Below are positions 25,556-51,929 of a DNA stretch of 64,000 bases, piece after piece. Both the position numbers and the translations under genes were made by a program. The notes beneath the pieces were generated by a model. The model did not search any database and had not been told where the DNA came from. It was given only the letters and a program-made list of their open reading frames with translations. Origin of the DNA: Colwellia maritima. Its GTDB lineage: Bacteria; Pseudomonadota; Gammaproteobacteria; Enterobacterales; Alteromonadaceae. Position 1 is the stretch's first letter; the number at the start of each line of letters is the position of its first letter. The stretch covers positions 124,001 through 188,000 of the forward strand of contig NZ_JAKKSL010000004.1 of the NCBI RefSeq assembly GCF_022669015.1. Reading direction: 5' to 3'.

Positions 25556-25561
25556 ACTGTT
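25556..25561. repeat. Target-site duplication, gcvP-side copy
   Basis: ACTGTT here is repeated at 52127-52132. It starts four bases after the gcvP stop codon. The last base overlaps the palindromic TGATCA terminus, so 4, 5 or 6 bp are all possible. Confidence 0.7.
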
Positions 25562-25627
25562 GATCACGACAATTCTAGTTGGAAACCGATCTGATCTAGT
25601 TGGAAACTAATAAATCTAGTTGGAAAC
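25561..25627 (+). repeat. Tn7 right-end-like terminus: TIR plus three packed boxes
   Basis: After TGATCACGACA come three exact copies of TCTAGTTGGAAAC at 25574-25586, 25595-25607 and 25615-25627, with 21- and 20-bp periods. Tight packing is what Tn7 right ends show, and in Tn7 the right end likewise lies next to the attachment gene. Confidence 0.75.
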
Positions 25628-25644
25628 TCTAGTCAAACATATTC

Positions 25645-25673
25645 AAAAGCGAACTTTAAAAGTTCGCTTTTTT
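25645..25673. terminator. Terminator just inside the gcvP-side transposon end
   Basis: AAAAGCGAACTT (25645-25656) pairs with AAGTTCGCTTTT (25660-25671), followed by T residues. It resembles the displaced native gcvP terminator (AAAAAGCGAGC with GCTCGCTTTTTT) and could restore gcvP termination after insertion. Confidence 0.85.
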
Positions 25674-25791
25674 CATTTAATACCTTTTATATTAGTAGCT
25701 TAGTATAGATTTTCATTATTTTTTATTAGAAAATAGTTACAGGAATTAATCGTAAGGAGATCTAATCAAAAAATAATATAAAGGTAGAAAC

Positions 25792-28215: not shown

Positions 28216-28699
28216 AACAAAAATAGAGAATATTAAAACTGAAATTGAACAGGCAATTAAATTTGGTTCTTTTCAATCCGGCAATCTTATTCTATTAGTG
28301 TTAAATCCCAGTGAAGAGCATGTAATTATTACACAGTTAATTGCCGGTAAGTTTAATAATACATCTAAGTTATTGTCAGAAAAATTAGTCGTATTGTCCC
28401 TAAAAGATAGAGAACGTGACTTACATAATTTAGTGTCTGACTTAGTAAAAGAGAGCAAAGATATTTGCTACTTATCAAGAATCAATGTGTTGTTTGAAGA
28501 AAGTTTACAAGCAGACCCATTAAAGCTGCTTCAACATGCAGCGAAAAAGAAACCCATAATTGTTATTTGGCCTGGGGATATAGATAGCATATCTCTGAAT
28601 TATGCAAAACCAGGTTTACCAGATCACAAAAGTTATAAATTAAATGAATTTCAAGATGTGCAGGTAATTACCACTTGTGAACAAGGAGTTAGTGAATGA
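28202..28699 (+). CDS. brxF: BrxF, type III BREX protein with degenerate P-loop
   Basis: Small first protein of type III BREX systems. The ATG at 28202 overlaps the end of the WYL gene. The C-terminal half has the pattern I recall for BrxF: CYLSRINVLFEESLQADPLKL then LQHAAKKKPIIVIWPGDI and YAKPGLPDHKSYKL. The family usually has an N-terminal P-loop; here the corresponding strand reads ILLVLNPSEEHVII and lacks a Gly-Lys-Ser/Thr. Its TGA overlaps the brxC ATG (ATGA), indicating translational coupling. Length 165 residues. Confidence 0.72.
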   Translation: MKVYKTKIENIKTEIEQAIKFGSFQSGNLILLVLNPSEEHVIITQLIAGKFNNTSKLLSEKLVVLSLKDRERDLHNLVSDLVKESKDICYLSRINVLFEESLQADPLKLLQHAAKKKPIIVIWPGDIDSISLNYAKPGLPDHKSYKLNEFQDVQVITTCEQGVSE

Positions 28700-31600: not shown

Positions 31601-32426
31601 AAGTGAATTTATCGAAATCACAAACTATTTAAGTAAAGCTCAATTAGTATTGGCTGAAAATGATGACTGGCAACAAATGGTTAAAAGTGCTCAACATGAA
31701 CTACGTCAAGGTTTGGCTGATAAAGACACAAGGCAATCAACTGAATTTAAGCAAAAAATGCTTAAACAATTAGCTGAAGCAAAACAATCTTATATCACTC
31801 GGTTTGTTTCGTTATATCAACGCGCCCATTTAACGTTGGCTGAAGATAAAATTAAAGCAGAATTGATGAATGATGACAGGTTAACTGCTCTAAGTTTATT
31901 AAGTGGCATCGCATTATTGCCGGGTAATCAAGTTAAAAATTGGCGTGAAGATTGGGCTAATTTACAGCCTGCTTCTGCTATTGATAGTAAAATGTTAGCA
32001 GTAGATCCAAACCCTGTTTCATTCAACCCAAGAACAGATAAAGACCTTGCACCTGCAAGTAATCGCTTGAACAGATTAGATGACCAATTAGATGCCATGT
32101 TAACGGAATGGACTTCTACACTCCAAACAAACTTAGCTGACCCATTTATCCAATTAGATTTAATGAGGTCAGAACAAAAAGCTGAAGTTGCAGTTTTTAT
32201 CGATTCTGGATGTTTGCCTGAACCATTAACAAAAGACTTTATTGAAGAAGTAAATAAAGTACTTGATGGATTAGTTGCAGTAGCAATAACGTCAGAGGAA
32301 CTCGTTGCTAGCCTTGGTAAAGGCACACCACAGAGTATTGATGATATACGTAAGCGTTTTGAGCAACTCATTGCTGAACGTTGTAAAGGCCAAGATAGCG
32401 ATAAAGTTCGCATCGTTATTGAGTAA
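28696..32426 (+). CDS. brxC: BrxC (PglY-like) BREX ATPase, frameshifted
   Basis: Large P-loop ATPase central to BREX, about 1243 residues across two frameshifts (near 29250 and near 31290). The Walker A is WIVGNYGSGKSHLMS (about residue 65-80), preceded by EKLISSYVISDKMKSKL; a Walker-B-like LLICDEILDYF follows. The second junction reads LAVSIQ then GDDSIVREMGDKIEQ. The C-terminal 360 residues are helical and coiled-coil-rich. BrxC forms oligomers on DNA with other BREX subunits. Both frameshifts leave conserved sequence intact on either side, so sequencing error is likely. Confidence 0.85.
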
Positions 32427-32488
32427 ACTTTTTCAAAAATAATTTACTAGAGCGCAGTTAATTAATAATTGCCTCTAAGAGAGAAAAT

Positions 32489-35317
32489 ATGCAACAAGAT
32501 TCATTATTAGATGACGCAAAAATCAAATCATCAAAAGACCCTGTAGAATGTTTAGGCCAAGCTTTCGAAAACGAAGAAGCACGTAGAGGGCATTTCACTA
32601 AACTTTTAAGTGAAAAGTTAAAAGATCCTGAATTTAGAAAAATTGCAGGATTTCCTATTGGCACTGATGAGTCGATTCTTGAGCTGTCTGATCCGCCATA
32701 TTATACAGCCTGCCCTAATCCTTGGTTAAATGACTTTGTTGAATATTGGGAGTCCTTAAAGCCAGTAGATGTAGATGAATATCAGAGAGGTCCATTTGCA
32801 GCAGATGTAAAAGAAGGGAAAAACGATCCCGTTTATAACGCTCATTCTTATCATACTAAAGTCCCTCATAAGGCAATAATGAGGTATATTCTGCATTATA
32901 CTAACCCTGGAGATACTGTTTTTGACGGGTTTTGCGGAACAGGTATGACTGGAGTTGCTTCTCAACTGTGCGGTAAAAAAGAAGAAATTGAGGCACTGGG
33001 GTACAAAGTATATTCCAATGGAGAAATCGCAGAAGAAGTTATTAATTCTAATGGGGAAAGAGAGTGGAAAGTTTTTTCAAAAATAGGAAAAAGAAATTCT
33101 GTTTTAAATGATTTGTCACCAAGCAGCGACTTTTATTTCAAGCGTATTAAATAAAGAAGTTAATATAGATCTGTTTGAAAAAACAGGAAGAAAACTAATA
33201 AATAAACTTAGAAAGCACTTAGGTAATTATTGGGAAACATTACATTCAGATGGTACGACATCAGGCTGTGTAAATTATTTTGTTTGGTCTGATGTATATA
33301 GTTGCCCGGAATGTACTAAGGAAATTATCTATTCTGAGCAAGTGTTTTTAAATCTTTGGGGAAAAACAGTATTCTCTCCTGAATTTTTGTGCCCTAGCTG
33401 TAATTGTAAATTATCTAAAAACCCTTCTAAAAGCTCCAATGCTCAAAAACCTCTTAGGTTGTTTGTTTCAGAGTTTGATCCTTTATTAGGGGAAGTAACT
33501 TCTATACAAAAACAAGTACCGGTAAAGATTAATTACTCTGTTGGAACCACCCGGTTTGAGAAAAAAATGGAGCAGAAGGACTTTGATAACCTCAATAAAA
33601 TTGAATTAGATACAGATAATTTGGCATTTATTCCCAAGGTGCCAATAGTCGATGGAGAAAAATCATCGGATCCATTTTTATTTGGTATAAAGCATGTACA
33701 TGAATTCTATACACCGCGAATGCTGAAGTGTTTATCAATATTTTCTGAAGAAATACTTGGTAACCAAACATTAAATTTTGTTTATGGAAGTATGTTACCT
33801 AAATTAACAAAAATGAATCGTTATATGCCTCAACATGGGGGAAGGGCATTAGTTGGGCCAATGGCAAATACATTATATGTTCCGCCCGTTAGTGTTGAAA
33901 ACAACCCCTTAGATCAGTTTGAGTTTCAATTTAAAAAAATTCTAAAAGCTCTAAATGATTTAGGCGGAAATTGCATTACAACACAAGCAACACAATCATT
34001 AAATCTTAACAAAGAATCCGTTGATTACATATTTATAGATCCACCATTTGGCGCTAATATTATGTATTCAGAGTTAAGTATCCTGAGAGAGTCTTGGTTA
34101 AAAGTCATTACTAATTCAAAACCCGAAGCTATTCAAAATAAACATCAAAATAAAGGATTGGATGAGTATCGTCACTTAATGTCGGATTGCTTCCAAACAG
34201 CATTTGATGTATTGAAGCCTGGAAAATGGATGACGGTTGAGTTTTCCAATACTAAAGCTAGTGTTTGGAATAGCATTCAAAATGCTTTGTCTGAAGCCGG
34301 TTTTATTGTGGCAAATGTTTCTGCCTTGGATAAAACTAGAGGAGGACTACATGCAATGCTTGGTCCTACAGCGGTTAAACAAGATTTAATAATTACGGCC
34401 TATAAACCTGAAGAGGTATATGCAGAAAGTAAATCTGAAGAAATTATTAGTGAAGGTTTTGTTTGGGGGTTTATTACAGAACATCTAAACCACTTAAGTA
34501 TAAGTAAAATTCAAAACGGTGAGCTGCTTTCCGTTCCTGAACGGGATGCTCGATTACTTTATGATCAATTGGTTGCGTTTTATGTTCGAAATTCAGCACC
34601 TTTACCTATTTCAAGTATTGAGTTTCAAAAAGGTTTGAAAGTAAGGTTCCCTGAAAGAGATGGAATGTATTTTACTCCTGAACAGGTCGCTAAATATGAT
34701 AAACAAAGAGCATCTTCTAAGGTCGTTAAACAAATCTCCATATTTGTAGATGATGAAGCTTCATCTATCGAGTGGCTAAGACAGGAGCTAAGTCGAAAGC
34801 CTAAAACTTACTCAGAAATACATCCTTTATTCTTAAATGAAATATCTGGATGGAAGAAGAACGAACTTCAATTGGAGTTAATGACTTTACTTGAGCAGAA
34901 TTACATTAAATATGATGGTAATGAAGATGTTCCTAATCAGATTCATACCTACCTTTCTACTAATTTTAAAGATATGCGTGGATTAGCCAAAGACGATCCT
35001 GCACTTGTTGCAAAGGCAAAAGATCGTTGGTATGTGCCAGATCCGAGTAAAGCCTGGTGATATTGAAAAGCTTAGACTTCGTGCATTATTGCGTGAGTTT
35101 GATGTATATAAAGAAGAGAAGAAAAAAATTAAACAGCCCCGTGCTGAAGCGTTAAGAGCCGGATTTAATGCTTGGCCGGGAAAAGCAAGATTTACAAACA
35201 ATTTTAGATATTTCAGCCAAGATACCTCCTGCTGTATTGCAAGAAGATGAAAAGCTGCTGATGTTCTACGATAACGCGTTAACGCTAACATCGAACAATG
35301 ATGATGATTGGGATTAG
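32489..35317 (+). CDS. pglXI: PglXI, BREX type III adenine-specific DNA methyltransferase, frameshifted
   Basis: DNA methyltransferase that would mark host DNA at the BREX site. SAM-binding motif I is TVFDGFCGTGMTGVASQLC; the catalytic motif IV is FIDPPFGANIMYSE (DPPF). Two CxxC pairs (SCPECTKE and LCPSCNCK) form a zinc ribbon between them. The frame breaks near 33115 (LNDLSP to AATFISSVLNKE) and again near 35050, after which GDIEKLRLRALLREFDVYKE continues through another shift near 35180 to a stop at 35317. Total about 940 residues. The order after brxC and before a helicase is that of type III BREX. Whether the target is adenine is inferred from the family. Confidence 0.83.
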
Positions 35318-35335
35318 TTTTTAAGGGAATGATGG

Positions 35336-38128
35336 ATGTTTGATGTCGGAGAGTGGGCTTGGAGTAAAGCCCATCAGCAACATGTTAAAATCATTGAGAA
35401 CTCTGGCCTTTGGGGGCAGAGTTTTTATCGTGTTTGGCTACAGCAGCAAGATTCAGTTGTCAAAGTAGTTGCTGATGACTTAGTCAACGTTGATAACCAA
35501 GCAGAAACCTAGTGAACATTTTATTTCTTACATTGCTGTTGCCGCTAAAATAGCTAACGCACAACAAGAAGATATTTTACTTGCTCCTATTGAATCAAAT
35601 GTAATTCCTTTATCTCATCAGTTGAAAGCCTTAAATAAGGTAATGTCGCGGAAACAAATTCGTTACTTACTGGCCGATGAAGTGGGTTTAGGAAAAACAA
35701 TAGAAGCTGGTTTAGCAATGCGAGAGCTAAAACTGAGAGGTATGGCTAAACGGATATTAGTGTGTGCTCCTAAAGGTTTAGTTAGTCAGTGGGTAAGTGA
35801 AATGAGTACTCATTTTAATGAGAATTTTCACTTACTTTTACCGGGAGAGCAAAAACCTGTTGATGAACATGACAACGTTTGGCTGCGTCATGATCAAGTC
35901 ATTTGCCCAGTTGATAGCATTAAACCGATAGAAAGCCGGAAAGGTTGGTCTTTAAAGCAAGTTCATGAATACAATAAACATCGATTTGATGATTTACTTG
36001 CAGCAGGTTGGGACTTAATTGTTATTGATGAGGCACATCGCTTAGGCGGAAGTACAGAATTTGTTGCTCGATATAAATTGGGGCAAGGGTTAGCAGAAGC
36101 AGCCCCTTACTTATTGTTACTTTCAGCAACGCCACATCAAGGTAAAAGTGATGCCTTCCATCGTCTGATGGCACTGCTTGATCCAGAAGTGTTTCCTGAT
36201 ATTGGTAGTGTGACCAAAGAGCGAGTGCAACCGTTTGTTGTTCGCACAGAAAAGCGTATTTCAATTGATGGTGAAGGAAAACCTTTATTCAAACCAAGAA
36301 AAACAGAGCTAATCCCTGTTGCTTGGCAACAAAAGCACGCTATTCAACGCCACCTTTATGAAGAAGTCACCGAATATATTAAAGAAGGCTATAACCAAGC
36401 TAAAGCCAAAAAACAAAATGCTATTGGTTTTTTAATGATTTTGATGCAGCGTTTGGTGAGTTCGAGCAGCGCTGCAATAGCTAAAACATTATCTAGGCGC
36501 TTAATTGCCCTAGACACTATGGTAGTCGAAGAAGAGCTACCACTATCATTCGCAGATGAATGGGCAGACCTAGATGGGCAAGCACAGCTAGATGAATTAA
36601 TCGTTGAAAGTAAGCAAGCCCTAGAGAATGAAAAAGCTGAAGTAGCTCACCTCTTAAAGCTAGCAGAAAAGTGTGTGGCTAATGAATGCGATGCGAAAGC
36701 GGAAGTATTGCTAGATTGGCTTTATAAATTGCAACAAGAAGAACAATCTCCTGATTTGAAAATGTTAGTTTTTACTGAGTTTGTTCCAACCCAAAGAAAT
36801 GCTTGCTAAGTTTTTTACTGATCGTGGTATTAGTGTGGTTTGTTTAAATGGCTCGATGGATTTAAATGAACGCAAAAAAGTACAAGCATCTTTTGCGGAT
36901 GATACTCGCATACTTATTTCGACTGATCTTGGTGGTGAAGGCTTAAACCTTCAGTTTTGTCACGTAATTGTTAATTATGATATGCCGTGGAATCCGATGC
37001 GAATGGAGCAAAGGATAGGACGGGTTGATCGTATAGGACAGCCTCATGTAGTAAGGGCATTAAACTTTGTTTTAGAAGATACAGTTGAGCATAGGGTACG
37101 TGATGTACTTGAAACTAAGCTTCAAGTGATTTTAGAAGAGTTTGGTGTAGATAAAACCAGTGATGTGCTTGACTCTGCTGAGGCTAATCATTTATTTGAT
37201 GAATTATTTATGGAGGCATTAACAAATCCTGATTTGATGGATCAAGAACTTGCTAAAGCCTTAAAAACAATTCAAGACGCAGGAAAGGACAAAAAATCAC
37301 AAGATAATTTATTTTCTGGCGGAGAGCAGTTGCTTGCTGATACTTATCAGAAAACGGCTAATCACCCATTACCGCATTGGGTTTCGGCAATGGTTGAGCA
37401 ATATATCTTATGGCAAAACCAACAAGGCGTTAAGGCTAAGTTTGATAAATCCTTAGTAGGTGGTTTAGATATTACTTGGCCAGATGGTGCTTTATGGAAT
37501 GATATTACCTTTGTTGGTAAAGAAGCCCAAGCAAAACATTAATCTCAAGCATATTACCTTAGAGAACCCTAAAATTAGAGGATTATGTACTCATTTACCT
37601 ATTTGGAGTGATGTGCAGTCAATACCTGTTGCAAGAGTACCAACATTACCAGTAGGTGCTTCTGGATACTGGTCTTTGTGGAGTGTACGCTTTGCAGGCA
37701 ACGATGAAAGGCAAGTTAAGTATTTGCCTATTTACATTAAACCTGATGGTAGTTACTTTGCTCCAGCCTCAAATCGGATTTGGGATGTGTTATGTTCGGG
37801 TACGGTAGAAATTATCAGTGGCTCCAGTACCGCGAAAAATTCAGATATTTATCAAATGCTGAGGTTTGTAGCAGAAGAACAGGGAAAATTAGTCTTTGAA
37901 GATATGCTAGTTGATTATAAAGCTGATTTATCTGAGCAAATGGATAAAGGAGAGTATTCATTTGCTGCTCGAAAACGAGCAATAGAGAGGATAGGATTAC
38001 CTGAAGTGAAAAATTATCGTTTACGCCAGTTAGTAGATGAACAACTTAACTGGTCACAGCAAATAAATGAAAAACAGCATGTGTACCCTGAGTTATCGCT
38101 TCATATTGTTTTTGAGATAAAGGGATAA
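35336..38128 (+). CDS. brxHII: BrxHII-type SNF2/DEAD helicase of BREX, frameshifted
   Basis: Superfamily 2 helicase of about 930 residues. The real N-terminus at 35336 (MFDVGEWAWSKAHQQHV, then LWGQSFYRVWLQQQDSVVKV) joins, through a frameshift near 35510, to ISYIAVAAKIANAQQEDILL. Motifs: I, LLADEVGLGKTIEAGL; II, DLIVIDEAHRLGG; III, LLLLSATPHQGKSD; V/VI, STDLGGEGLNLQFC and MEQRIGRVDRIGQ. Further shifts lie near 36795 and near 37530; the tail (SVRFAGNDERQVKYLPIY) extends to 38128, four bases before pglZ. The role in type III BREX is likely DNA translocation or remodelling. Confidence 0.85.
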
Positions 38129-38131
38129 TTG

Positions 38132-40099
38132 ATGGATTGGCAAAAAGAATTGCTCGGTAAGTTAGATTTCAATGCGAAACAATGCTTTATTATTTCAGAT
38201 CCGGAACATTTATGTTTTGAGCCTTTAATTGCAGAGCGGTTCGAACAAGCTGAAGTTGAATTAGTTGATGATAGCGATCCTATTTCATTAAGGTTTATAT
38301 ATGAAAGCCGGCTTGAAAAAAACAACAATAAAGCGTTAATTATTACATGTGCTGAAATAGAAGATAACTATATTCCTTTTGATATCACATTCAATGCAAC
38401 CAATATCAACTTTCATATCAATGAAATAATACCAGAACTAGAGGTTGAAACACTTCGAAGTATTTCACCCGTCTATTTTCAGCCACTGAAAGAAGCCATT
38501 TCAAGTTATCGCCCAGGAAAGCTAGGTCGAATTGCTAGTTTGGATTTCTTGCTTAGGCATATATTCAAAATTGCTCCTGAAATAATTCAAACAGAAGTGG
38601 ATTTAGTAAGGCTATTAATTCAAAAACACTACCTCGGTGGTGAAATGCCTGAAGCAATAGAACAAAGGTTAATTGCATTATTAAAACTTAATGACACTTT
38701 TAATGGTTGGGACTTCGATAGATTATTGCCTAGTAAAGCTGAATTCTTTGAGTTTTTACAAGTTCAATGGACACTATATCTTGAAACATTAGTTTCTGTT
38801 GATGAATTAAAAGAACCACCATGGCCGCAAGGTAAGTTAATAGTGCCTTTTGACGATCAGGATGTTCAAGTTTATGTTGATAACTTATTTGCTGATGGTT
38901 TGCTTAAACCCGTTAATATGGAAGGAATATCAAAAAATCATTGGGCTGTGATAGGCATAATAAGTGAAGATGGAACATCTCAGTTAAAGCGGTTTTCTCA
39001 CTTACTTGCTCGTTTAAATAGTGTATTTTTACAAGAATTAGTTAATGACCTAAGTGCTGATATTTGGGGCGAACATGCCTTTGAACTTGGTATGTTAAAT
39101 GCGTTAGGTCATCAAATTAAAACGTTATCAGCTTCAGAAATAACATCTTTAAATCATCTCAATACTAAAGTTGATCATCTTTTTGAAGAATGGCTTTTTG
39201 AAAAGTTTGGCGGTTTAATTTCTTTACCTGCAATTCGCCATCCTAACATGCTGCATAAAATACCTGACTGGCTTAATAGAAAGGTACAAGACGATAAAAA
39301 AATATGTTTGTTGGTAATGGATGGCATGGGATTTCAACAATGGTCATTGTTTAGAGAGTCATTGAATTCCTGCTCAAGAATAACAATGGAAGAGCATTAT
39401 AGTTTTGCTTGGGTGCCCACTATTACTTCAATTTCACGACAGTCGATGTTTTCGGGTAAAAAACCTTATTTTTATGCTGACTCACTTTTAACAACATCAA
39501 AAGAAAGTAAGCTATGGCAGGCATACTGGGAAAATAATGGATTAACTAGTAAAGAAGTGTTGTATGCAAAAAAAGTTGAAGACAGAGCAACTAATGAATC
39601 TTTTAGTGATTTGATATCTAATCGTCATATTAAAGCTCTTGGCTTAGTAATCAATTTTGTTGATGAACAAATGCATGGCATGAAGGCCGGAATGTCAGGA
39701 CTAAATGCTGTAGTGTCTGACTGGATAGTAACTTGGAAATTTGAAGAAAAAATTAACATTTTAATTGATCTTGGTTATGAGGTGATTATTACTGCTGATC
39801 ACGGTAATCAAGAAGCTATTGGCTGTGGGGCGTTGAGGGAAGGCGTAAAGGCTGAAACTAAAGGTGAGCGAGTTAGGATATATGATTCAGAAAATGCAGC
39901 GACTAGTTCTAATGACCTTTTAGACGGGAAAGTGCTAAAATGGCCAGGCAAGAAATATGGCTTACCTGAAGGACGATTTCCATTAGTAAGCAGAGGAACT
40001 CATGCGTTTGTAAAAGAAGGGAAAAAAATTGTTGGGCATGGTGGGATCAGCTTACATGAAGTTGTTGTACCGCTAGCCGTTATAAAAAGAAAGTTGTAA
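38132..40099 (+). CDS. pglZ: PglZ, alkaline-phosphatase-superfamily BREX protein
   Basis: Hallmark BREX protein present in all BREX types, intact at about 655 residues. The C-terminal PglZ domain has the metal-binding motifs CLLVMDGMGFQQW and VIITADHGNQE, and HAFVKEGKKIVGHGGIS near the end. The N-terminal half is helical (about 380 residues) and not recognisable by motif. The ATG at 38132 is preferred to the TTG just before it; AAGGGAT lies upstream. Metal-dependent nuclease or phosphatase activity is proposed for the family. Confidence 0.88.
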   Translation: MDWQKELLGKLDFNAKQCFIISDPEHLCFEPLIAERFEQAEVELVDDSDPISLRFIYESRLEKNNNKALIITCAEIEDNYIPFDITFNATNINFHINEIIPELEVETLRSISPVYFQPLKEAISSYRPGKLGRIASLDFLLRHIFKIAPEIIQTEVDLVRLLIQKHYLGGEMPEAIEQRLIALLKLNDTFNGWDFDRLLPSKAEFFEFLQVQWTLYLETLVSVDELKEPPWPQGKLIVPFDDQDVQVYVDNLFADGLLKPVNMEGISKNHWAVIGIISEDGTSQLKRFSHLLARLNSVFLQELVNDLSADIWGEHAFELGMLNALGHQIKTLSASEITSLNHLNTKVDHLFEEWLFEKFGGLISLPAIRHPNMLHKIPDWLNRKVQDDKKICLLVMDGMGFQQWSLFRESLNSCSRITMEEHYSFAWVPTITSISRQSMFSGKKPYFYADSLLTTSKESKLWQAYWENNGLTSKEVLYAKKVEDRATNESFSDLISNRHIKALGLVINFVDEQMHGMKAGMSGLNAVVSDWIVTWKFEEKINILIDLGYEVIITADHGNQEAIGCGALREGVKAETKGERVRIYDSENAATSSNDLLDGKVLKWPGKKYGLPEGRFPLVSRGTHAFVKEGKKIVGHGGISLHEVVVPLAVIKRKL

Positions 40100-40104
40100 T
40101 AGAT

Positions 40105-40815
40105 ATGTCTAAAAGGGTTAATTATAGTCGTCATATAGAGGCTCATTGGTTAGATCAAACGGCACTTTGGGTTGCCGAAGGGCTAAGCAAACAAGAATTA
40201 CACGATAAAATTAATTCAATGCTTTCACCGCTAATTAATTGCAAGGTTAACTTAGGAAAAACGAGAAACCAATTAACATCGTTATGGTTTGATAAGAACG
40301 AAAATGTCAGTAGTGAGTTCTCAGCATTTGCAGTAGAGTACGTGAAAGAGGGCCATGATATTCCTCTAATTATTCATTGGGGCTTATTGATAGCTAAAAA
40401 GAAGTTTTTTGCTGATGTAGCAAGGTTTATAGGTAGAAACTCTAAGCTAAATGATTCATTTACTTACGCTCAAGTGCAAAAGCGAATGATTGAGATGTAT
40501 GGTGACACTGAAACAGTTAAACGTGGGCTGCGTTCAGTGCTTAAGACGATGGTTGATTTTGGTGTTTTGCTACGAAGTAACGCCAGAAGTTATCAAGTAA
40601 ACCCAAATAATTTAACAGTACCTAATAAGTTAATGAATTGGCTATTATGTGCATTATTATTTAGTGAAGATGTAATGAGCAGAACATTGTCAGATATGAT
40701 TGATGATGCTGTATGGTTCCCTTTTGATATTAGTATTCAGCCAGAAGACATCGATAAACAATGGTTTGAAGTGCATCAGCAAGGTTATGACTTGATGTTG
40801 TTCAGAAAGAAATAA
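40105..40815 (+). CDS. brxA: BrxA-like protein (DUF1819-type), copy 1
   Basis: A 236-residue helical DNA-binding-type protein in the last position of the type III BREX operon, where brxA belongs. It shares a clear pattern with the next gene: RHIEAHWLDQTALWVAEG, IIHWGLLIAKKKFF, KLNDSFTYAQVQKRM and YGDTETVKRGLRSVLKTM. No signal peptide or membrane segment. It starts five bases after pglZ without a strong ribosome site, suggesting coupling. The family name rests on position and weak pattern resemblance. Confidence 0.65.
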   Translation: MSKRVNYSRHIEAHWLDQTALWVAEGLSKQELHDKINSMLSPLINCKVNLGKTRNQLTSLWFDKNENVSSEFSAFAVEYVKEGHDIPLIIHWGLLIAKKKFFADVARFIGRNSKLNDSFTYAQVQKRMIEMYGDTETVKRGLRSVLKTMVDFGVLLRSNARSYQVNPNNLTVPNKLMNWLLCALLFSEDVMSRTLSDMIDDAVWFPFDISIQPEDIDKQWFEVHQQGYDLMLFRKK

Positions 40816-40835
40816 TAAAAAATAAGAGAAGTAAT

Positions 40836-41543
40836 TTGAAAGTATCAATTGGTTTTAATCGACACTTAGAGTCGAACTGGCTAGCTCAAACAGCATCTTG
40901 GGTAGCAAATGGCATTGAAGGCAAAGAGTTAAAAGATAAGATTGATTTATTACTTACTCCTGATTTTACTAGCCAAGTAGCCAAGGATAAAACACGTAAT
41001 TTACTTTTTGGGATTTGGAGTAAATTACCAAAACATATCCCAAGTGATTTTCAACGTGATGCTGCTAACTTATTGATGGAGTACAGCGAATTTAATTTGG
41101 TGTTTCATTGGGGAATGATGCTTTCAAAATACCCGTTCTTCAAATCTGTAGTTGAACAAATTGGTCGGTTAACCAAATTAAATGACTCATTTTTATATTC
41201 TCAACTAGAGCAAAGAATTACTGAAAACTATGGTGATACTTCAACCATAAAAAGAAGTATGCAATTCGTGATAAGAACTTTGATGAACTTAGAGTTACTA
41301 GCTAATCCTAAGCAAGGTATATATCAACTTAGAAAGCCTATTCAAGTTAATAATCCATCAATAAAAGCTTGGTTAGTTGAAGCTAGTGTTTATTCAGCGC
41401 AAGTAACAAGTCGAAGCTTAACCGCTATTAATGATGAAAATGTATGGTTTCCATTTGAGCTTTATTTCGATGAAAATGATCTGAGTCATAATGATCGCTT
41501 AGAAGCACACCATCAAACCGCTGATGTGATAGTGTTTGTTTAA
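40836..41543 (+). CDS. BrxA-like protein, tandem paralogue
   Basis: A second copy of the preceding gene, 235 residues, with the same blocks: RHLESNWLAQTASWVANG, VFHWGMMLSKYPFF, KLNDSFLYSQLEQRI and YGDTSTIKRSMQFVIRTL. By eye about 30-35 percent of positions agree, so the duplication is old. The start is TTG at 40836, supported by AAGAGAAG three to five bases upstream. Type III BREX operons normally have one brxA, so a diverged tandem pair is unusual. It ends the operon. Confidence 0.65.
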   Translation: MKVSIGFNRHLESNWLAQTASWVANGIEGKELKDKIDLLLTPDFTSQVAKDKTRNLLFGIWSKLPKHIPSDFQRDAANLLMEYSEFNLVFHWGMMLSKYPFFKSVVEQIGRLTKLNDSFLYSQLEQRITENYGDTSTIKRSMQFVIRTLMNLELLANPKQGIYQLRKPIQVNNPSIKAWLVEASVYSAQVTSRSLTAINDENVWFPFELYFDENDLSHNDRLEAHHQTADVIVFV

Positions 41544-42386: not shown

Positions 42387-42409
42387 GGCCCCTTATATTG
42401 GGGCCTTTT
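42387..42409 (+). terminator. Strong terminator after the small gene
   Basis: GGCCCC (42387-42392) pairs with GGGGCC (42400-42405), followed by TTTT. It ends seven bases before the next ATG (42416), so it could also act as an attenuator or block the next gene's start. Confidence 0.8.
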
Positions 42410-42415
42410 ATAATT

Positions 42416-44054: not shown

Positions 44055-44262
44055 AAGCTTTATCACAGGCTCTAAAGCCTGATAATAGTATTAATGCATG
44101 ATACCCGTTATGGGAAATTGCAAGGCCGGCAGCCTCTCTATTAGATACAAACCATTTAGGTTGTATGGTGATATTAAATTGGCGGTGATCTTTTATAGAT
44201 ACCGGGTTCGCAGCATATAGAGGTCCCTACTGGCCTGCGGCATCAATTTTATATTGGATATA
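44055..44262 (+). ncRNA. Possible structured RNA upstream of the PD-(D/E)XK gene
   Basis: Several stable hairpins occur in series: CAGGCT/AGCCTG (near 44067-44082), CCC/GGG around GTTAT (44104), AGGC/GCCT (44122), ATACAAACC/GGTTGTAT (44145-44166), and a three-way junction closed by AAATTG (44176-44181) and CAATTT (44244-44249) that holds GGT(G)ATC/GAT(A)CC and CGCAG/CTGCG arms. The stretch is more GC-rich than its surroundings and has no open frame. I do not recognise the family and saw no group I or group II intron core. Confidence 0.35.
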
Positions 44263-44265
44263 ACT

Positions 44266-44661
44266 ATGCCTGTAAAAAATGCAAACCGCACAGCACCCGC
44301 AAATCAATATTATAAAAACACCTCTTTTGAAACGTTAGCCGCAAGTTGGTTTACCTATGATGGTTGGGAAGTTTTCGTTCCTGTTATTGACCATGATATG
44401 AAAACAGACCTATTGGTGAGTGATGGCGTTAACTTCTACCGGATTCAAATTAAAACGGTTGAGTCAGCAGATGAGTCTCACTTAGTTGAAAATAAGTGGG
44501 GTGATGCCAAAATCGATTATGTTATCTATTTCTCGAAAAGTGCTAATTGGGGTTATATATCTAAACCCTTCAAGAAGCGCAGAAAGCGCTTAAATTCTCC
44601 AGACAATATAAAGTTCCACCAACATCATAAGCCGTTTATTAAAGCGCTTAGTTTGATATAG
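44266..44661 (+). CDS. Small PD-(D/E)XK-type nuclease (intron-endonuclease-like)
   Basis: A 131-residue protein starting MPVKNANRTAPANQYYKNTS. The nuclease core is visible as SFETLAASWFTYDGWEVFVP then DMKTDLLVSDGVNFYRIQIK: an acidic residue, a beta-hairpin and a Q-x-K strand end, as in PD-(D/E)XK proteins and in the small endonucleases associated with group I introns. The basic patch KPFKKRRKRL may bind nucleic acid. No Shine-Dalgarno precedes the ATG; instead a folded region ends four bases upstream. Target unknown. Confidence 0.65.
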   Translation: MPVKNANRTAPANQYYKNTSFETLAASWFTYDGWEVFVPVIDHDMKTDLLVSDGVNFYRIQIKTVESADESHLVENKWGDAKIDYVIYFSKSANWGYISKPFKKRRKRLNSPDNIKFHQHHKPFIKALSLI

Positions 44662-44842: not shown

Positions 44843-47800
44843 ATGTCGTTTGAAGTTAATTATGAAGAAGATTTAGTTTCTAGAATTAGAGACCTTATTG
44901 ATGGTTATTCAAAAAACTCTATATTGAAAGAGTATCTGCAAAATGCAGATGACTCAAACGCAACCGAGCTAATAGTTACTTTTGATAAAAGACGACACTC
45001 TTCATTAACTGATTCTAAATTTGAAGTAGCTAGCGGACCATCACTTCTACTCTTTAATAACTCTCAGTTTAAAGAAAAAGATTTTAAATCAATTGTTAAA
45101 ATCAGTGCACAAGGAAAGGTGGATGATCCAAATTCTACCGGACGTTTTGGCCAAGGATTTAGTTCCGGCTTCAGTATATGTGACCATCCTACATTTATTT
45201 CTAACGGTAGAGCCTATTGGTTTGATGTACTTAAAAGTGCGGTAGCAAAAGGAAATAATAAAAGTATTCAAGGTTGGGATTTAGGGCAAGATCATGAAGA
45301 AATTTCTGAATGGTTAACAACTTTCAATTTAGATAATGAAAATCCAGGGACTACATTTCGATTACCATTAAGACATAAAAATACTGCACGATTAGGAAAC
45401 ATCAGTCATGAAGAGTTTACGTTTGATGACTTCTTGATATGGTGTGATGAGTGGAAAGATAATTCTTCAGGTTTATTGTTCTTAAGACATATTCAAAAGC
45501 TAACTTTACAAGAAATTAATGAAAATAATGAAAAGATCATTCATGTTGAAATAAGCACAGAAAACACTAAAGAAATACATGATATTAGCAAACAAATACA
45601 AAATGAATTTACAGATGGGCTTTTAAATATATGTTCAGGCCGGAAAAATAGAGCAGAAGAATTACCTCTTTTTACATATCAGCATCATTTTAAAATAAAT
45701 CACTATGACAGAGAAAAGCAAGCTGTTCATAAGACGGAAGAAAGTTGGGCGGTAGTTAATGGTTTATTCAGGGGGGAAAATGATGTCTTAATAGATCAGG
45801 CTATAAAGGTATTAAATATTTCACCTAATCCTCGTAAAGTCCTTCCTTGGGCCGGAGTGGCGATTAGACTAGATGAAAAAGGAAATGTAAAAAAACTTGA
45901 AAAGTCTAATTATCATGCATTCCTACCATTGCCAATTAAATCTAAACACTCAGTTAACATTCATGGGTGGTTTGATCTAAACCCTAAAAGAACAGAGATT
46001 ACTTATGATGGTTCAGGAAACGATAAAGAAATATTAATAGAGTGGAATCAACTATTATTTAAAGAAGCAATTGGTTGTGCTTGGGCGTATTTGATTGACT
46101 TTATTAAGCTTAATTGCTCTTCAACTATTTACTACTCCCTATGGCCTAAGAATAATGATGACGAGTTTGATGAATACCTTTTAGACGGATTTTATAACAC
46201 TATATATGAACTTGCCTGCTTAAAAACCAAGTACAAAAAAGAAACTATCTGGAGTAAGTCAACAGATGAAATTTACTACCTTCCAAAAACTACAAAGAAT
46301 TTATTCGAGGCAATTAAAGAACATTTTTCAATAATTTCACCCAAGCCTCCATTAAATGTTATCAATGGCTTTCGTGATATTGAAACAGAGTTAAAAATTA
46401 TTTCCCCTGTACAGGTAAGAAACTTTTTGACTGAGGAAGCAGAGAATATTGAGTTTCCAGTAGATTTAAATAGTATTCCAATCACAATGATCTCAAAATT
46501 GGAGTGGTTAAAATCAATTTTAATTTATTGTGCGGAAGCCGATGACGATCAAGATTTTAGTTACCTAGACTCGCTTCCTTTAGAATTAACAATTGATAAT
46601 AAAGTGAATATCATATCTGGCAATAGACTCTTAGATAACAGCCCAAGGCTTTCTGTATTCGAACTAGATAAATCTCTATTTATACATCCTGAAATAATTG
46701 AGATTGTTAAGAATGCTGAAGAACTACCTCCATCATGGTTAGTTCCTTCTCTAAATAATTATTTAACTGTTCTAAATGAACATATTGAATCATACGATCG
46801 TACAAAAAAGGAGTGGTTGAAGAACGTTATTTCTTTGATTGTTAAAGCTAATGAAGTTGAAATATTAGATGCTCTTGGGCAGATTCATGAATTAGAAATT
46901 GTATGTCAACATGATTCCACATTTGCAAAACTTCAAACAAGTAAAAACTCTCCTTTTTTTGTAAAAGAAAATGAAGTCTCTAATATCCACTTTCTATTAG
47001 GTACAGGTTTGAGTACAGTTCACCCAGAGTATTTGGATATCTATAATCCTATACTCAAATGGAATAAGCATGGATTAATAAAAGAATTTAATTCTCATAC
47101 ATTAGCCAAATACCTGCTTTTAGTTCCTGTTGATGACTACCAGTTTTTTAATCAAAAACCTACAAGAGAGTACTTAATTGATATTTTGGCACAAGACCTA
47201 ACATGGATGGATGACCTAAATAGCAATGAAAAAAAATACTTGAATGAAATGCCTTTTATTGCAACCGAAAGTGGAAACGTTTATTCGAAAAGTGAAGACG
47301 TAAAGTTATATCTTCCTGCCGGTTTTGTTCCGCCTAAGCACATTCAAAAGTTAAAAGGAGAGTTTGAGATAATACATACAAACGATGATAGAGAGCATCG
47401 AATGTATTTAAAAATGGAGATTGAGGAACAAACACCACAAAACTACCTTAAACAAGTTATTTTGCCATTTATTGATAATTCTCCATTAGTTGAAGATGTT
47501 ATAAAAATATCTGAATGGCTAGCTAATAATTGGAAAACCTTAGTTAAAGACTTGTCTGAAGATGAAGAAAGCGAATTGAAATTAAGCTTGTCTTCAGCTC
47601 ATTTTGTTATTGATTCTGAACGTAACCTAAACCTTGCAAGTAACTACTATCATCCAAGTTTTTTCGCTACCCTCCCTAAGACTATTCAAGATAAAAAGTA
47701 TTCGCCATATAAATTTGAAAGTCCAGAAACTCAGAGTAATTGGTTAGACTTGCTATCAAAAATAGGAATCTCAAATACAGTAATTCCAGAACATATTGTT

Positions 47801-50247
47801 AACGTTGTCAATTCAATCGTAGCAGAAGAAAATGTACTTAAATCAGTCGAATTAATAAATTTTATATCTAATTTTTTCGAGATATTTGAAGATATGAAAT
47901 TTGAAAATAAGAATATTTTAATTTATCTGTCAAAGCGGCTTGGGTTCCTTCCGAAGGAGTTCGTGGAAGGGTGTTGTGTCCAGAGGAAAAGTATCAAAAG
48001 TTACGAACACCAAATGAGTTAATATTAGGTCGAGATTACAAGAGGGTGGTGGTGCGCATTATTGTGTTTCTTCAGAAATAAAGTTAGGAAAGAAAGATAT
48101 AGATGGCGAGTACTCTGAAAAACAGATGGCAGAAAAAATCGGTATATTAGCAACACCAACAATGTCTAGCATACTCAAGAGTTTTCGTAGGCTCATTCAT
48201 TTAAACAATTCAGGGAAAAGCTACGACAAAAGAGTTTCTGAATATGCCAAAGAGTTTTATAAATATGTAGGACTTAATAATGTATATGAGAGCCAAATAC
48301 CTGAAGATATAAAAGAAAAGTCAATTTTTATTAAAGGGAATTGGTTACCATCAAGCAGTGTTTTTCAACAGCTAATTGAGCTATCAGGAATTTATAGCCG
48401 GGATGAGTTAATTGTCAATGATGGTAAAGAGTCAAGATTAGCTGAAGGGCTTATTAAACTGGGAGTTTCTGAACGGCCAGATAATGAATATTTAGTCAGT
48501 TTTTTACGTGGTTTGCCACAAAATCAAAAGTTAGAAAAACAAAACCTCAAAGATGCTAAAGCTATATTGTTTGAATTACAAACCAAACTTGTCGGATATC
48601 GATTATGATAAGGTGTTATTACTATCTCGCTCTGATAAGTTACTGACTAGTAAGAGTCTTTACATAAAAGATTTACCCTCATATGATAATTCTGATAGAA
48701 AGAATGAACAGATAGACTTCTGTCAGCAGCAATTTGAAAGATTAGCTAGAAAATGCGATGTCGTTTCGTTAGCTGATAAAATAACACCAATCTTAGATAC
48801 CGAACAATCGAAAAATTCATCAGAAGGTTTGGGGATTTGGGGGGATGCTATACATAGTGAGCCTTTTAAATTCTCAATTTTAAGATTAGTTTATCATGAG
48901 GGTAACATTGATGAAGGCGACATTAATCATGATGCAATCGAATCAGTATTACCTTCAGAGCTTTACTTGATGGATTCCATCGTAGTGAAGTACTTTGTGG
49001 GGGATATTTGGGCTTATGATGATTTACATGCATCAACGTTTCAAGATATAGCTAATAGCTCACTCTATCTTTTGAATCAAGAAGATGATGAAGACATGTG
49101 CGAAAGTATTGCCACTTTCATAAGTGACTCTTCTGATTTAAGTAGAAGTAGCTACAGTTTGATAAGCCGAATTCTTAGAAATAAAATATTTACTTTAGAA
49201 GAGATAAATTATTTGCCGGATTCCAAAAATATAAAATCTTTACCAGAAGCAATTATTGTAGATGATAATATTTCACTTTATGGTGAAATTGAAGATGAAT
49301 CCTTAGATGATGATCATAGCTTTGCAAGTGATTTAGAGAAAAAACTTACTGAAACAGATTTTTTGAGTGATAGCGAAAAATTAGAATTTCAAAATACGGA
49401 TCTTGCTCCACCTATTAACCCCAAGTCAACAAAACCATCTGATAGTAATAATAAAGGCTCAAATGGTAGAAGCGTTAGTAGCTCTAATCGAAGCTTTACC
49501 AATAATCAAGATTCAAGGCCCAATCAAAGTGCTAATAATGACTCATTTAATAATAATGACTCATTAAATAATAAAGATATAAATCGACTTTCTCACACAT
49601 CAGAAAACCCAAATAAGATTGTTAGTCCAAATGATAGAAAACCTGTATATGTAGGTAAAGAGAAAGAAGTTGAGTCTGAATCTACGCTAGATAAAAAAGG
49701 TTTTGCCACTGAAATTGGTAATAAAGGTGAAGATTATATTATAAAACATTCATCTGATTACATCCTGTCGAAATCGAATAGACTAGAGAAAGCGTCTGTA
49801 AATAATAAAGGTTTTGATATTCGAGAGTTAAATTCAGAAGGTGATCTTGTTAGGTATATTGAAGTGAAAACACTAACAGGAATGTGGGCCGAAGGGGGAG
49901 TAGCCGTAACAGAGTCGCAACTCGAATTTGCCCAAGTAAATGATGAATGGTGGTTATTTGTTGTTGAGAATGTTAATTGTAATAATCCTAGTGTATATGT
50001 TTTTGAAAACCCAGTGCAAGAAGCAAATCGCTTCATGTTTGATCATAGCCGGAAGCAGCTCAGTAAAACTGCTGTAAAAGTGCAAGAAAAAATACCTGAA
50101 CAAGGCGAGAGATATAAATTGTCTGATGGAATATATGAAATATGTAAGGTTGATACGAAAGGTAAGCTTCATAAAGTCACCATTAAAGAAGTTGGTTCTG
50201 ATAAGAAGTTAACGAAAAAGTATGATCCGACATGGGAGAAGTGTTAA
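44843..50247 (+). CDS. Giant sacsin-like HATPase protein with C-terminal DUF3883, frameshifted
   Basis: About 1800 residues after repairing frameshifts near 47985, 48045 and 48590. The N-terminus is an HSP90/histidine-kinase-type ATPase of the sacsin kind: LKEYLQNADDSNATEL (N-box), GRFGQGFSSGFSICDHP (G-box) and GTTFRLPLR. A long unrecognised helical region follows, then an acidic, Asn/Ser-rich linker (about 49300-49640), then a DUF3883 domain: GNKGEDYIIKHS, NNKGFDIRELNSEG, RYIEVKTLTG, EGGVAVTESQLEFA, EWWLFVVENV. DUF3883 resembles a PD-(D/E)XK nuclease fold (D...E-x-K). It shares an overlapping stop/start with the next gene. HATPase plus DUF3883 proteins are common in defence islands; exact role unknown. 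Confidence 0.8.
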
Positions 50248-51929
50248 TGGCGAACATTATTCCATTATTGTCTGATGAACAGATTGAAAAAATATCATCA
50301 AAAGCAGAACAAAAGCTTTATAAAGCTCTTGCGGAACAGTTACCTAAAGACTGTTTGATAATCCACTCATTAGAGTTTATTAAACAAACCTCTAAATACA
50401 AAAGTCATGGAGACCGAGAAGCTGATTTTGTTATTTTCTCACCATTATATGGGGTTTTGGTTGTTGAAGTTAAGGGAGGGGGGATTCAATATGATAAGTC
50501 GATTGATCAGTGGTATTCAATAGATCGTTATAAAAAGCAACACGAAATAAAAAACCCTGTTAGACAAGCAAAAGATGCTAAATACGAGATAAAAAATCAT
50601 CTCCAACAAAAGCTAGGCAAGACGAATATTCTTCTTGCTCACGCGGTAATGTTCCCTGATATCGAGCATGCGGGACCTTTAGCGTCACCAGAAATGGTAA
50701 CTGAAATCATAGGAACAAATGCTAATATTAAGAACCTTAATAATTGGGTAATAGATGTTTTCGAGTATTGGTCTGGTGAAAACTCTAAACAAGATAAACT
50801 TGGAGTAAATGGAATTAGAGTAGCTGAGCAGATTTACGGCAAAAAAGTTTCTATTCAGCCCTCCTTACGCTCAATAATTGAGAAAGAAGTACAAAAACAA
50901 ATTGAATTGACTAATCAGCAAAAAATTATTCTTAGACAATTAAAAAGAAGGAAAGAAGCATTAATTGAAGGAGGAGCAGGAACTGGAAAAACAGTTTTGG
51001 CTTTAGATCAAGCTGTCAGTCTTGCTGAACAAGGATTGAAAGTCTTACTTCTTTGCTATAACCAAAAATTAGGCGATGCTCTAAAAGTTAAATCACAACA
51101 TACCAATAACCTTCACTCTATGAGTTTTCATGAGTTTTGCTCATGGAGAGTTAGGCAAGTAAAACACAATACAGATCGCGATTTAATTGAAGAGTCTAGG
51201 CAAGTATATCCACAAGATAATTTATATGACGTATTGATGCCAAATGCATTAATCAATAGCTATGACCTAGCACCGATTGAATATGATGTGATTTTAATAG
51301 ATGAAGGGCAAGATTTTAAACCCGAATTTTGGTTTGCTATTGAAATGTTAAAAGATCAAAAAGAAGATACGAAGCTATATATTTTTCAAGATTGTAATCA
51401 AGCAATTTATTCAGAGGTGACTGAATTACCAATTAGTTGTGAACCATTATATCTCTTCGATAATTGTCGTAATACTAAGTTTATACATGATGCTGCTTAT
51501 AGGTATTATAAAGGTTCTGAAGTTGATGCTCCTGAACTTAAAGGAGAACCAATTCAACTAATCGATAAAATCTCCTTAGAGCACCAAGCAGCAGAAATTG
51601 ATAAAATGATATCTAAACTAGTAAATACAGAAAGAATTACCTCTGAAGATATTGCGGTAATAATTATAGGATCATTTTTTCAAGCTCAAGAATTACTATC
51701 AAAAACGAAGAATAACCATATGTGGGCTTTTAAAGAGTTTTCACCTAAATCAAAAGTTTTAGTCGAAACAGCAAAAAGGTTTAAAGGATTGGAATCAAAG
51801 CTGATTTTTTTATGGGTTGTTGATGAACAAAAGGTCGATGAAAAATTACTTTATGTATCTATTTCACGTGCTAGACTTAGGTTATGGATAGTGGGTTGCA
51901 AACCATTTCTTGATGGTCTGGATTTATAA
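50247..51929 (+). CDS. NERD nuclease-UvrD-like SF1 helicase fusion
   Basis: A 560-residue protein whose ATG overlaps the previous stop codon (TAATG); GGGAG lies upstream. Residues about 20-130 form a NERD domain: GDREADFVIFSPLYGVLVVEV then KG, i.e. D...EVK, and KNPVRQAKDAKYEIKNHL. A superfamily 1 helicase follows: Walker A EGGAGTGKTVLALDQA, Walker B DVILIDEGQDFKPEFW, LFDNCRNTKFIHDAAY, and motif VI VSISRARLRLWIVG. NERD domains are nuclease-like. Coupling with the sacsin-like gene suggests one two-protein system in which this subunit unwinds and perhaps cuts DNA. Confidence 0.85.
   Translation: MANIIPLLSDEQIEKISSKAEQKLYKALAEQLPKDCLIIHSLEFIKQTSKYKSHGDREADFVIFSPLYGVLVVEVKGGGIQYDKSIDQWYSIDRYKKQHEIKNPVRQAKDAKYEIKNHLQQKLGKTNILLAHAVMFPDIEHAGPLASPEMVTEIIGTNANIKNLNNWVIDVFEYWSGENSKQDKLGVNGIRVAEQIYGKKVSIQPSLRSIIEKEVQKQIELTNQQKIILRQLKRRKEALIEGGAGTGKTVLALDQAVSLAEQGLKVLLLCYNQKLGDALKVKSQHTNNLHSMSFHEFCSWRVRQVKHNTDRDLIEESRQVYPQDNLYDVLMPNALINSYDLAPIEYDVILIDEGQDFKPEFWFAIEMLKDQKEDTKLYIFQDCNQAIYSEVTELPISCEPLYLFDNCRNTKFIHDAAYRYYKGSEVDAPELKGEPIQLIDKISLEHQAAEIDKMISKLVNTERITSEDIAVIIIGSFFQAQELLSKTKNNHMWAFKEFSPKSKVLVETAKRFKGLESKLIFLWVVDEQKVDEKLLYVSISRARLRLWIVGCKPFLDGLDL

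What the first reader, a model, noticed from the sequence alone, without database searches (positions are those of the whole stretch)
44843..51929. Candidate undescribed two-gene system: sacsin-like ATPase/DUF3883 giant plus NERD-helicase
A roughly 1800-residue protein with an HSP90-like ATPase at one end and a nuclease-like DUF3883 at the other is translationally coupled (TAATG) to a NERD-SF1 helicase. Both proteins carry both an ATPase and a nuclease-like domain. I cannot match this exact pair to a named defence system.
Basis: partly seen in the sequence, partly recalled or inferred. Interest (0 to 1): 0.7.

Follow-up and report, generated by a model that had tools for sequence, protein, structure and literature searches.

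The report
Tiamat defence gene with helicase partner
Next to a BREX phage-defence system, a bacterium carries a relative of the known anti-phage gene Tiamat coupled to its own nuclease-helicase gene; the same pair recurs in other bacteria, so this defence may often work with a DNA-handling partner, although the copy in this assembly is interrupted by frame breaks.

Summary
The pair is real and recurrent, but the giant is not undescribed. Its three ORF pieces match PADLOC's TmtA (Tiamat; E 3.9e-198, 1.1e-24, 5.7e-107), with a sacsin-like N-terminus and a NOV_C/DUF3883 C-terminus. Housekeeping genes in the window are split too and ORF overlaps are raised elsewhere in this genome, so assembly indels are likelier than decay. 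The second gene, an intact NERD-SF1 helicase, is joined by TAATG. Eight TmtA+NERD-helicase loci were found; their helicases form one branch (100/99) of 33. All eight TmtAs carry an extra C-terminal segment, modelled in one as a Tudor/SH3-like barrel; 1 of 11 unpaired TmtAs has it. Some other TmtAs sit beside different SF1 helicases or a NERD protein. Best reading: a two-gene Tiamat variant in which TmtA senses infection and licenses a helicase-nuclease attack on DNA. Identity and co-occurrence are shown; mechanism is inferred.

The parts
44843..48022 (+). tmtA, N-terminal and central part: sacsin-like Hsp90-type ATPase region (residues 9-231) plus TmtA central region; roughly the last 27 codons are out of the gene's frame
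   Evidence: ORF; Pfam SACS E 3.9e-46; PADLOC TmtA PDLC03966 E 3.9e-198; 60% identity to S. morhuae TmtA
47941..48045 (+). short stretch of tmtA that matches in another frame between the first two breaks
   Evidence: tblastn with S. morhuae TmtA residues 1034-1068, frame 1, 40%
48024..48596 (+). tmtA, central part in a third frame (holds most of ORF 48126-48608)
   Evidence: tblastn residues 1062-1253, frame 3, 59%; PADLOC TmtA E 1.1e-24
48553..50247 (+). tmtA, C-terminal part: NOV_C/DUF3883 PD-(D/E)XK-like nuclease domain (about 49726-49995) and C-terminal extra segment, barrel-like (about 50089-50244)
   Evidence: ORF; NOV_C E 1.4e-10; PADLOC TmtA E 5.7e-107; barrel modelled on the S. morhuae homologue, aligned
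50245..50249 (+). TAATG stop-start overlap joining tmtA to the helicase gene
   Evidence: sequence printed; TAATG or TGATG in 5 of the 7 junctions printed there
50247..51929 (+). NERD-SF1 helicase, intact: NERD (about 50298-50648; D65, E79, K81 counted from ORF start 50232), SF1 helicase (about 50913-51902; Walker A GGAGTGKT, DEGQ box)
   Evidence: ORF from 50232; Pfam NERD and UvrD; residues invariant in 5 paired homologues, the G of DEGQ excepted; AlphaFold mean pLDDT 84.8
27297..41543 (+). context: type 3 BREX (WYL regulator, BrxF, BrxC/DUF6079 in 3 ORFs, PglXI in 2, BrxH in 3, PglZ, two BrxA)
   Evidence: BREX-3 PglZ NF033449 565 bits, cut-off 250
44254..44661 (+). context: small PD-(D/E)XK-like protein just upstream of tmtA, weak match below cut-off
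   Evidence: PDDEXK_5 E 1.6e-4

Best explanation
This is a two-gene variant of the Tiamat defence system. TmtA (sacsin/Hsp90-like ATPase switch, long central region, NOV_C nuclease-like domain, C-terminal Tudor/SH3-like segment) is translationally coupled to a Tiamat-dedicated NERD-SF1 helicase. Most likely working: TmtA's Hsp90-like domain is the ATP-gated sensor and clamp that changes state when it meets an infection product; its C-terminal barrel docks the partner machinery (the helicase, or RNA polymerase/DNA); the NERD-helicase loads on exposed or branched phage DNA, unwinds it, and the NERD and NOV_C nucleases cut it. Shown here: family identity, repeated pairing, stop-start overlap, an invariant Walker A motif and catalytic-type residues in the helicase, and the association of the C-terminal segment with the partner. 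Inferred: sensing, docking, DNA as target, and that both genes are needed.
For: TmtA identity of the pieces and of intact relatives. These eight helicases form one branch, 100/99, among 33. TmtA and helicase trees agree in part: L088 groups with the window set and L069 with L107 in both; identity matrices correlate (rho 0.67; 169 of 5040 permutations as high, 7 loci). TAATG/TGATG at 5 of 7 printed junctions. pN/pS between window and S. morhuae is 0.31-0.41 in the three tmtA pieces measured and 0.20 in the helicase. C-terminal segment in 8 of 8 paired and 1 of 11 unpaired TmtAs (Fisher 1.2e-4), modelled for S. morhuae with good confidence over 52 residues and like EF-P domain I and the PcrA/UvrD Tudor domain. 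Some other TmtAs sit directly beside other SF1 helicases or a NERD protein.
Against: No functional data. TmtA without this helicase exists, including one in the window's own genus (G007; nearest helicase-like ORF 5.6 kb away) nested among paired TmtAs, so the helicase is not obligatory for the family. Microvirga TmtA has the C-terminal segment but no NERD-helicase. The Fisher test ignores relatedness; on the TmtA tree pairing needs 4 changes against a shuffled mean of 5.7 (72 of 500 shuffles as low) and the segment 3 against 5.9 (10 of 500). G516 groups with Sphingomonas and G070 in the TmtA tree but is unplaced within the helicase branch. The local tmtA reads broken.
Confidence: 0.58

Rival explanations
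1. TmtA is a self-sufficient abortive-infection device: Hsp90-like sensing unleashes NOV_C on host nucleic acid, and the NERD-helicase is an accessory, back-up or anti-escape module that is not needed for the basic activity.
For: TmtA loci without a helicase next to them were seen (G007; G400 L101). Passages in a review and a survey list Tiamat with mechanism unknown; that PADLOC and the founding paper treat it as one gene is recalled.
Against: A helicase branch found only with TmtA (8 of 8), stop-start overlap and the coupled absence of helicase and C-terminal segment in G007 suggest more than an optional neighbour.
Confidence: 0.25
2. The NERD-helicase is only a neighbour in a defence island; the two proteins do not work together.
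For: Relatives of this helicase also sit behind DrmB/DUF1998 and DruE genes, and the window is a defence island.
Against: Eight loci in different contexts (BREX-3, a PglZ gene, type I R-M genes by eye, a plasmid, a viral contig) keep the same order and near-zero spacing, and the eight helicases form one branch.
Confidence: 0.08
3. In this strain the system is dead: tmtA is a pseudogene with real frameshifts.
For: Three frame changes in tmtA; the window has more ORF overlaps than the rest of the genome sampled (17 against 6.5 per 100 kb); BrxC, PglXI and BrxH are split too.
Against: Conserved housekeeping genes in the window are split as well; overlaps are raised elsewhere in this genome against G009; pN/pS shows constraint before and after the breaks.
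Confidence: 0.2

Closest known systems
Tiamat (TmtA; PADLOC PDLC03964-03972)
   Same: Profile matches along nearly the whole length (PDLC03966 positions 27-1652 of 1655 in three pieces); sacsin-like N-terminus and NOV_C C-terminus.
   Different: Coupled to a dedicated NERD-SF1 helicase and carrying a C-terminal segment past the end of the PDLC03966 match (S. morhuae TmtA matches to residue 1740 of 1791). That Tiamat is defined as one gene is recalled.
RTasNERD-Hel (PADLOC PDLC03813, listed under DRT)
   Same: Best PADLOC model for the helicase, nearly end to end (E 2.1e-63).
   Different: No reverse transcriptase among the neighbours profiled or annotated here; the partner is TmtA.
NERD-helicases of DrmB/DUF1998 and DruE loci (DISARM- or Druantia-like)
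   Same: Same NERD-SF1 architecture; the DrmB/DUF1998 set is the nearest branch in the helicase tree, with modest support 85/72; genes end to end with DrmB or DruE.
   Different: About 25-31% identity to the window's helicase, separate branch, other partner.
Schlafen SLFN11/SLFN14 and UvrD/PcrA helicases
   Same: Foldseek: SLFN11 E 6e-20, UvrD/PcrA about 1e-12; Pfam SLFN-g3 helicase E 7.7e-7.
   Different: TM-score (query) 0.48 or less and 11-19% identity in the rows shown; the N-terminal nuclease is NERD; the helicase model ends without the C-terminal Tudor domain of UvrD/PcrA (that domain's place recalled and seen as 5dma/7egs titles).
Sacsin SR1 domain (PDB 5v44-5v47)
   Same: N-terminal positions 12-225 of a 3-sequence TmtA profile match, E 2.6e-27.
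   Different: One such region was found here and NOV_C at the other end; sacsin has three Hsp90-like modules, DnaJ and HEPN (PMC3710099 passage).

Membership tests
Tiamat (TmtA) | Match to TmtA profiles along most of the protein | tested here: met
   three pieces cover 27-893, 965-1118, 1130-1652 of 1655
Tiamat (TmtA) | Sacsin/Hsp90-like N-terminal ATPase region | tested here: met
   (SACS E 3.9e-46)
Tiamat (TmtA) | C-terminal NOV_C/DUF3883 domain | tested here: met
   (E 1.4e-10)
Tiamat (TmtA) | One uninterrupted reading frame in this strain | tested here: not met
   probably sequence errors; intact in relatives. A property of this copy, not of the family
Tiamat (TmtA) | Single-gene system (recalled definition) | tested here: inconclusive
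   a dedicated helicase is coupled to it, but whether TmtA alone protects was not tested
Tiamat (TmtA) | Protects against phage | not testable with these tools
   needs plating assays
DRT-associated RTasNERD-Hel | Profile match to PDLC03813 | tested here: met
   E 2.1e-63
DRT-associated RTasNERD-Hel | Adjacent reverse transcriptase | tested here: not met
   the gene before is TmtA and the next one after is a transporter-type binding protein; not every window ORF was profiled
Type 3 BREX (neighbour) | BrxF, BrxC/DUF6079, PglXI, BrxHII, PglZ, BrxA | tested here: met
   three genes split by frame breaks; PADLOC does not tell BrxHI from BrxHII in the model matched
Mokosh, Gabija (GajB), Nhi | Full-length profile match of the helicase or the giant | tested here: not met
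   partial matches of the helicase only, best of these three E 5.9e-9 (Nhi)

The most novel reading that the evidence does not exclude
TmtA is the switch subunit of a wider class of defence machines that borrow an SF1 helicase-nuclease: different TmtA branches have separately acquired NERD-SF1, UvrD-PD-(D/E)XK, UvrD-only or SF1B-type helicases. In the NERD branch the UvrD/PcrA-type Tudor domain has been moved off the helicase and onto TmtA, so that TmtA docks the helicase (or RNA polymerase) in trans: an Hsp90-gated, possibly transcription-coupled attack on phage DNA.
Probability: 0.17. Interest if true: 0.7.

Novelty: new variant of a known kind. Interest (0 to 1): 0.47.

Why it matters
In the passages I read, Tiamat's mechanism is given as unknown. 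A dedicated helicase-nuclease and a C-terminal segment that goes with it point to DNA as the substrate and name concrete parts to mutate, so the question of how an Hsp90/sacsin-like giant defends a cell becomes testable. It also warns that scoring Tiamat as one gene may miss a partner, and shows the NERD-helicase as a module shared by Tiamat, DrmB-type and DruE-type loci.

Tried and rejected
Rejected: 'undescribed giant'. Rejected: a real 1800-residue ORF in this assembly. Held unlikely: chance neighbourhood of the helicase.

Led nowhere or gave little: TmtA N-terminal part in phage records, no match, and in plasmids, no match, though the Sphingomonas TmtA found 10 plasmid records, its own included; TmtA queries in viral contigs, none for two queries and only its own contig for L088; S. 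morhuae NERD-helicase in phages, 2 distant records. In 279 genomes of the class of G790 (taken for Alphaproteobacteria by eye) 36 have a helicase-profile match and 8 a TmtA C-terminal match; in the two genomes on both lists (G1106, G1122) the matches lie on different contigs, so no pair was seen there. In 398 genomes of the phylum 5 have a TmtA C-terminal match, own included; the loci of the other four show no NERD-helicase of this kind. The NOV_C part of the model is of low confidence (pLDDT mostly under 50) and was not interpreted. The Pfam Tudor matches are below the curated cut-off (E 0.002 and 0.083); Foldseek hits for the barrel are weak (best E 0.012) and a Z under 8 may mean only a common small barrel.

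Papers: the founding Tiamat paper is not held and is recalled. Searches for a TmtA-NERD link found none: Tiamat+TmtA 0 papers, three of NERD/helicase/Tiamat/sacsin 0, tmtA+anti-phage+ATPase 0; some searches listed papers, none with such a link in its listing or in the passages I opened. This covers open-licence PMC text only. Of PMC3710099, PMC12629846, PMC12926258, PMC10482375, PMC9009780, PMC12409351, PMC12458937, PMC10952713, PMC12839542 and PMC10853773 I saw passages found by keyword, no whole text.

Rows dropped: of 49 helicase ORFs of 60 bits or more 33 went into the tree; dropped were 4 duplicates, 2 partial and the 10 lowest scoring. Of the 25 unpaired rows 22 were scanned for TmtA with profiles, 2 judged by annotation and 1 (L114) not checked; several scanned loci had only about 1.5 kb of flank. 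Among the 25 family genomes with a helicase match the weakest loci (L025-L039) were not scanned for TmtA. For the C-terminal count L141 (no NOV_C match) and L100 (cut by contig end) were left out. The TmtA tree left out L046 (cut), L103 and L143, and used only the first piece of the window's tmtA and the longer piece of L107's.

Full report
What is there. The finding's coordinates hold a giant gene and a helicase gene on the + strand. The giant is not one ORF: ORFs 44843-48022 (1059 aa), 48126-48608 (160 aa) and 48553-50247 (564 aa) lie in three frames, and tblastn with an intact homologue, the 1791-aa protein of Shewanella morhuae, covers it in four pieces in frames 2, 1, 3 and 1 with changes near 47.94, 48.04 and 48.59 kb. 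The helicase ORF 50232-51929 is intact; its start is more likely at 50247, inside TAATG.

Error or decay. The same window splits conserved genes outside the defence cluster: a U32 peptidase, aminopeptidase P and a FAD_binding_3 protein each match one Pfam family over two ORFs. In ten 20-kb stretches of this genome 13 neighbouring same-strand ORFs overlap by 20 nt or more, against 2 in ten stretches of relative G009. This favours indel errors in the assembly, but the window itself has 11 in 64 kb, so decay of this island is possible. Between the window and S. morhuae pN/pS is 0.31 (first piece), 0.375 (middle) and 0.41 (C-terminal piece), and 0.20 for the helicase; synonymous sites are saturated or nearly so.

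What the giant is. The three ORF pieces hit PADLOC's TmtA (PDLC03966) in order along the profile. Pfam gives the SACS (sacsin) domain at the N-terminus and NOV_C at the C-terminus; a profile of three relatives hits solved sacsin SR1 domains (E 2.6e-27). That TmtA is the protein of Tiamat is recalled; PADLOC prints the name TmtA only. Passages in a review and a survey list Tiamat among systems of unknown mechanism (PMC12926258; PMC10482375). A 2013 analysis calls DUF3883 a novel REase domain (PMC3710099 passage).

The partner recurs. A scan of GTDB contigs with a two-sequence helicase profile gave three loci: S. morhuae (75%), a MAG (72%) and Colwellia sp. MB02u-6 (56%). Each has TmtA directly upstream with the same 16-nt overlap of the ORFs as called; in the MAG TmtA is cut by the contig end. 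More pairs came from a Sphingomonas naphthae plasmid (37%; DUF3883 protein of TmtA subfamily PDLC03969), genomes G070 (same family as the window; TmtA in two ORFs) and G516 (same class), and a viral contig (L088; recombinase- and transposase-like ORFs nearby, by eye). With the window that makes eight. Among the hits I could place, each NERD-helicase with 37% or more identity to the window's over most of its length lies behind TmtA. In a tree of 33 NERD-helicases the eight form one branch with 100/99 support. The nearest branch (joined with modest support, 85/72) includes five helicases next to DUF1998 or DrmB genes (L071, L072, L146, L144, L095); L091 stands behind a DruE. The pair is uncommon: with the helicase as query 25 of 295 genomes of the family match, and three of them (own, G309, G070) are known pairs.

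Co-inheritance. In the TmtA tree (17 rows) window, Shewanella and Colwellia group with L088 as the outer row, and Sphingomonas with G070, as in the helicase tree; G516 joins Sphingomonas and G070 in the TmtA tree but is unplaced inside the helicase branch. Identity matrices for seven loci correlate (rho 0.67; 169 of 5040 permutations reach it). Against: pairing needs 4 changes on the TmtA tree and is only weakly clustered (72 of 500 shuffles as low).

The C-terminal segment. Paired TmtAs run 128-140 residues from the NOV_C E-x-K motif to the end; of 11 unpaired TmtAs with a readable C-terminus seven have 72-88, three (L102, L013, L014) have another tail, and one (Microvirga, L140) has the segment (132). 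AlphaFold models the last 52 residues of the S. morhuae protein as a small all-beta barrel-like fold (four strands of three or more residues), ten-residue blocks at pLDDT 78-92, while the rest of the fragment is poor. Structural neighbours are 1yby (Z 7.7), EF-P domain I (Z up to 7.6), the PcrA/UvrD Tudor domain (5dma, Z 7.0; 7egs, UvrD C-terminal domain with the RNA polymerase lobe, Z 7.0) and other Tudor/SH3-like folds; a Z under 8 may mean only a common arrangement. Pfam's PcrA_UvrD_tudor model matches the same stretch in L107 (E 0.002) and L069 (E 0.083), both below its cut-off. The window's helicase model shows no such barrel after its helicase core. G007's TmtA, in the window's own genus, lacks both segment and helicase although it is nested among paired TmtAs (99/99): a coupled absence. 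Microvirga is the counter-example.

Other TmtAs have other partners. L106 (G790): a UvrD helicase with a PD-(D/E)XK nuclease domain ends 3 nt before TmtA. L103 (G515): an AAA_11/AAA_12 helicase follows 3 nt after a TmtA-like C-terminal part. L102 (G436): a UvrD helicase follows after 57 nt. L105 (G883): a UvrD-PD-(D/E)XK gene stands divergently about 0.3 kb away. L143 (Sulfuricurvum plasmid): a NERD-zinc-ribbon protein overlaps the TmtA start by 4 nt. In L004 and L101 no such partner was seen next to TmtA, L142 is followed by methyltransferase and S-subunit genes, and L141 by unrelated genes. So helicase or NERD partners recur with different TmtAs, apparently by separate acquisition; this is a small, uneven sample.

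How it most likely works. Shown: architecture, recurrence, coupling. Inferred from family knowledge (recalled): Hsp90-type ATPases act as nucleotide-gated clamps; NERD and NOV_C are PD-(D/E)XK-class nucleases; SF1 helicases translocate on single strands. I propose that TmtA senses infection and, through its C-terminal barrel, holds or licenses the NERD-helicase on phage DNA, with cutting by NERD and/or NOV_C. Whether the target is phage DNA or the host's is open. The helicase fold is nearest by Foldseek to Schlafen helicases (SLFN11 E 6e-20, TM 0.46), then Upf1 and UvrD/PcrA.

Context. The pair follows a type 3 BREX system (BREX-3 PglZ 565 bits against a cut-off of 250). The island begins just after gcvP: DNA similarity to two relatives of the genus stops at 25.56-25.68 kb and what follows differs in each.

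Verdict. Known family, new variant: Tiamat with a dedicated helicase partner. Identity 0.95, functional unit about 0.8, proposed mechanism about 0.45; these are my estimates.

Noticed in passing
window 25560-25680: Similarity to relatives G021 and G017 ends right after gcvP and a different set of genes follows in each genome, so the 3' side of gcvP looks like a hotspot for variable islands in this genus.
   Followed up: partly
window 40105-40815 and 40836-41543: Two BrxA genes in tandem in the type 3 BREX operon, both matching PADLOC BrxA.
   Followed up: no
window 26379-27039 and L006 9433-10083: A small protein (split here over two overlapping ORFs) resembles by eye the gene directly before a 2493-aa giant with a weak sacsin-region match in relative G026.
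   Followed up: no
L143 7195-10901 (Sulfuricurvum kujiense plasmid): A NERD-zinc-ribbon protein overlaps the start of a 1006-aa TmtA-like protein, next to qatABCD: a NERD partner without a helicase.
   Followed up: partly
L106 9185-15193, L103 740-7213, L102 4461-11516: TmtA-like proteins directly beside UvrD-PD-(D/E)XK, AAA_11/12 or UvrD helicases.
   Followed up: partly
L091 1639-9743; L144 5151-8695; L095 280-3779; L151 2776-6536: NERD-SF1 helicases end to end with DruE (L091) or DrmB (the others), on more than one branch of the helicase tree.
   Followed up: partly
window 6693-8988, 16447-17800, 19205-20487: Conserved genes split into overlapping ORFs, a sign of indel errors in this assembly.
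   Followed up: yes
window 42398-44014: A 538-aa protein between BREX and tmtA with no match in Pfam, PADLOC or NCBIfam at the limits used.
   Followed up: no
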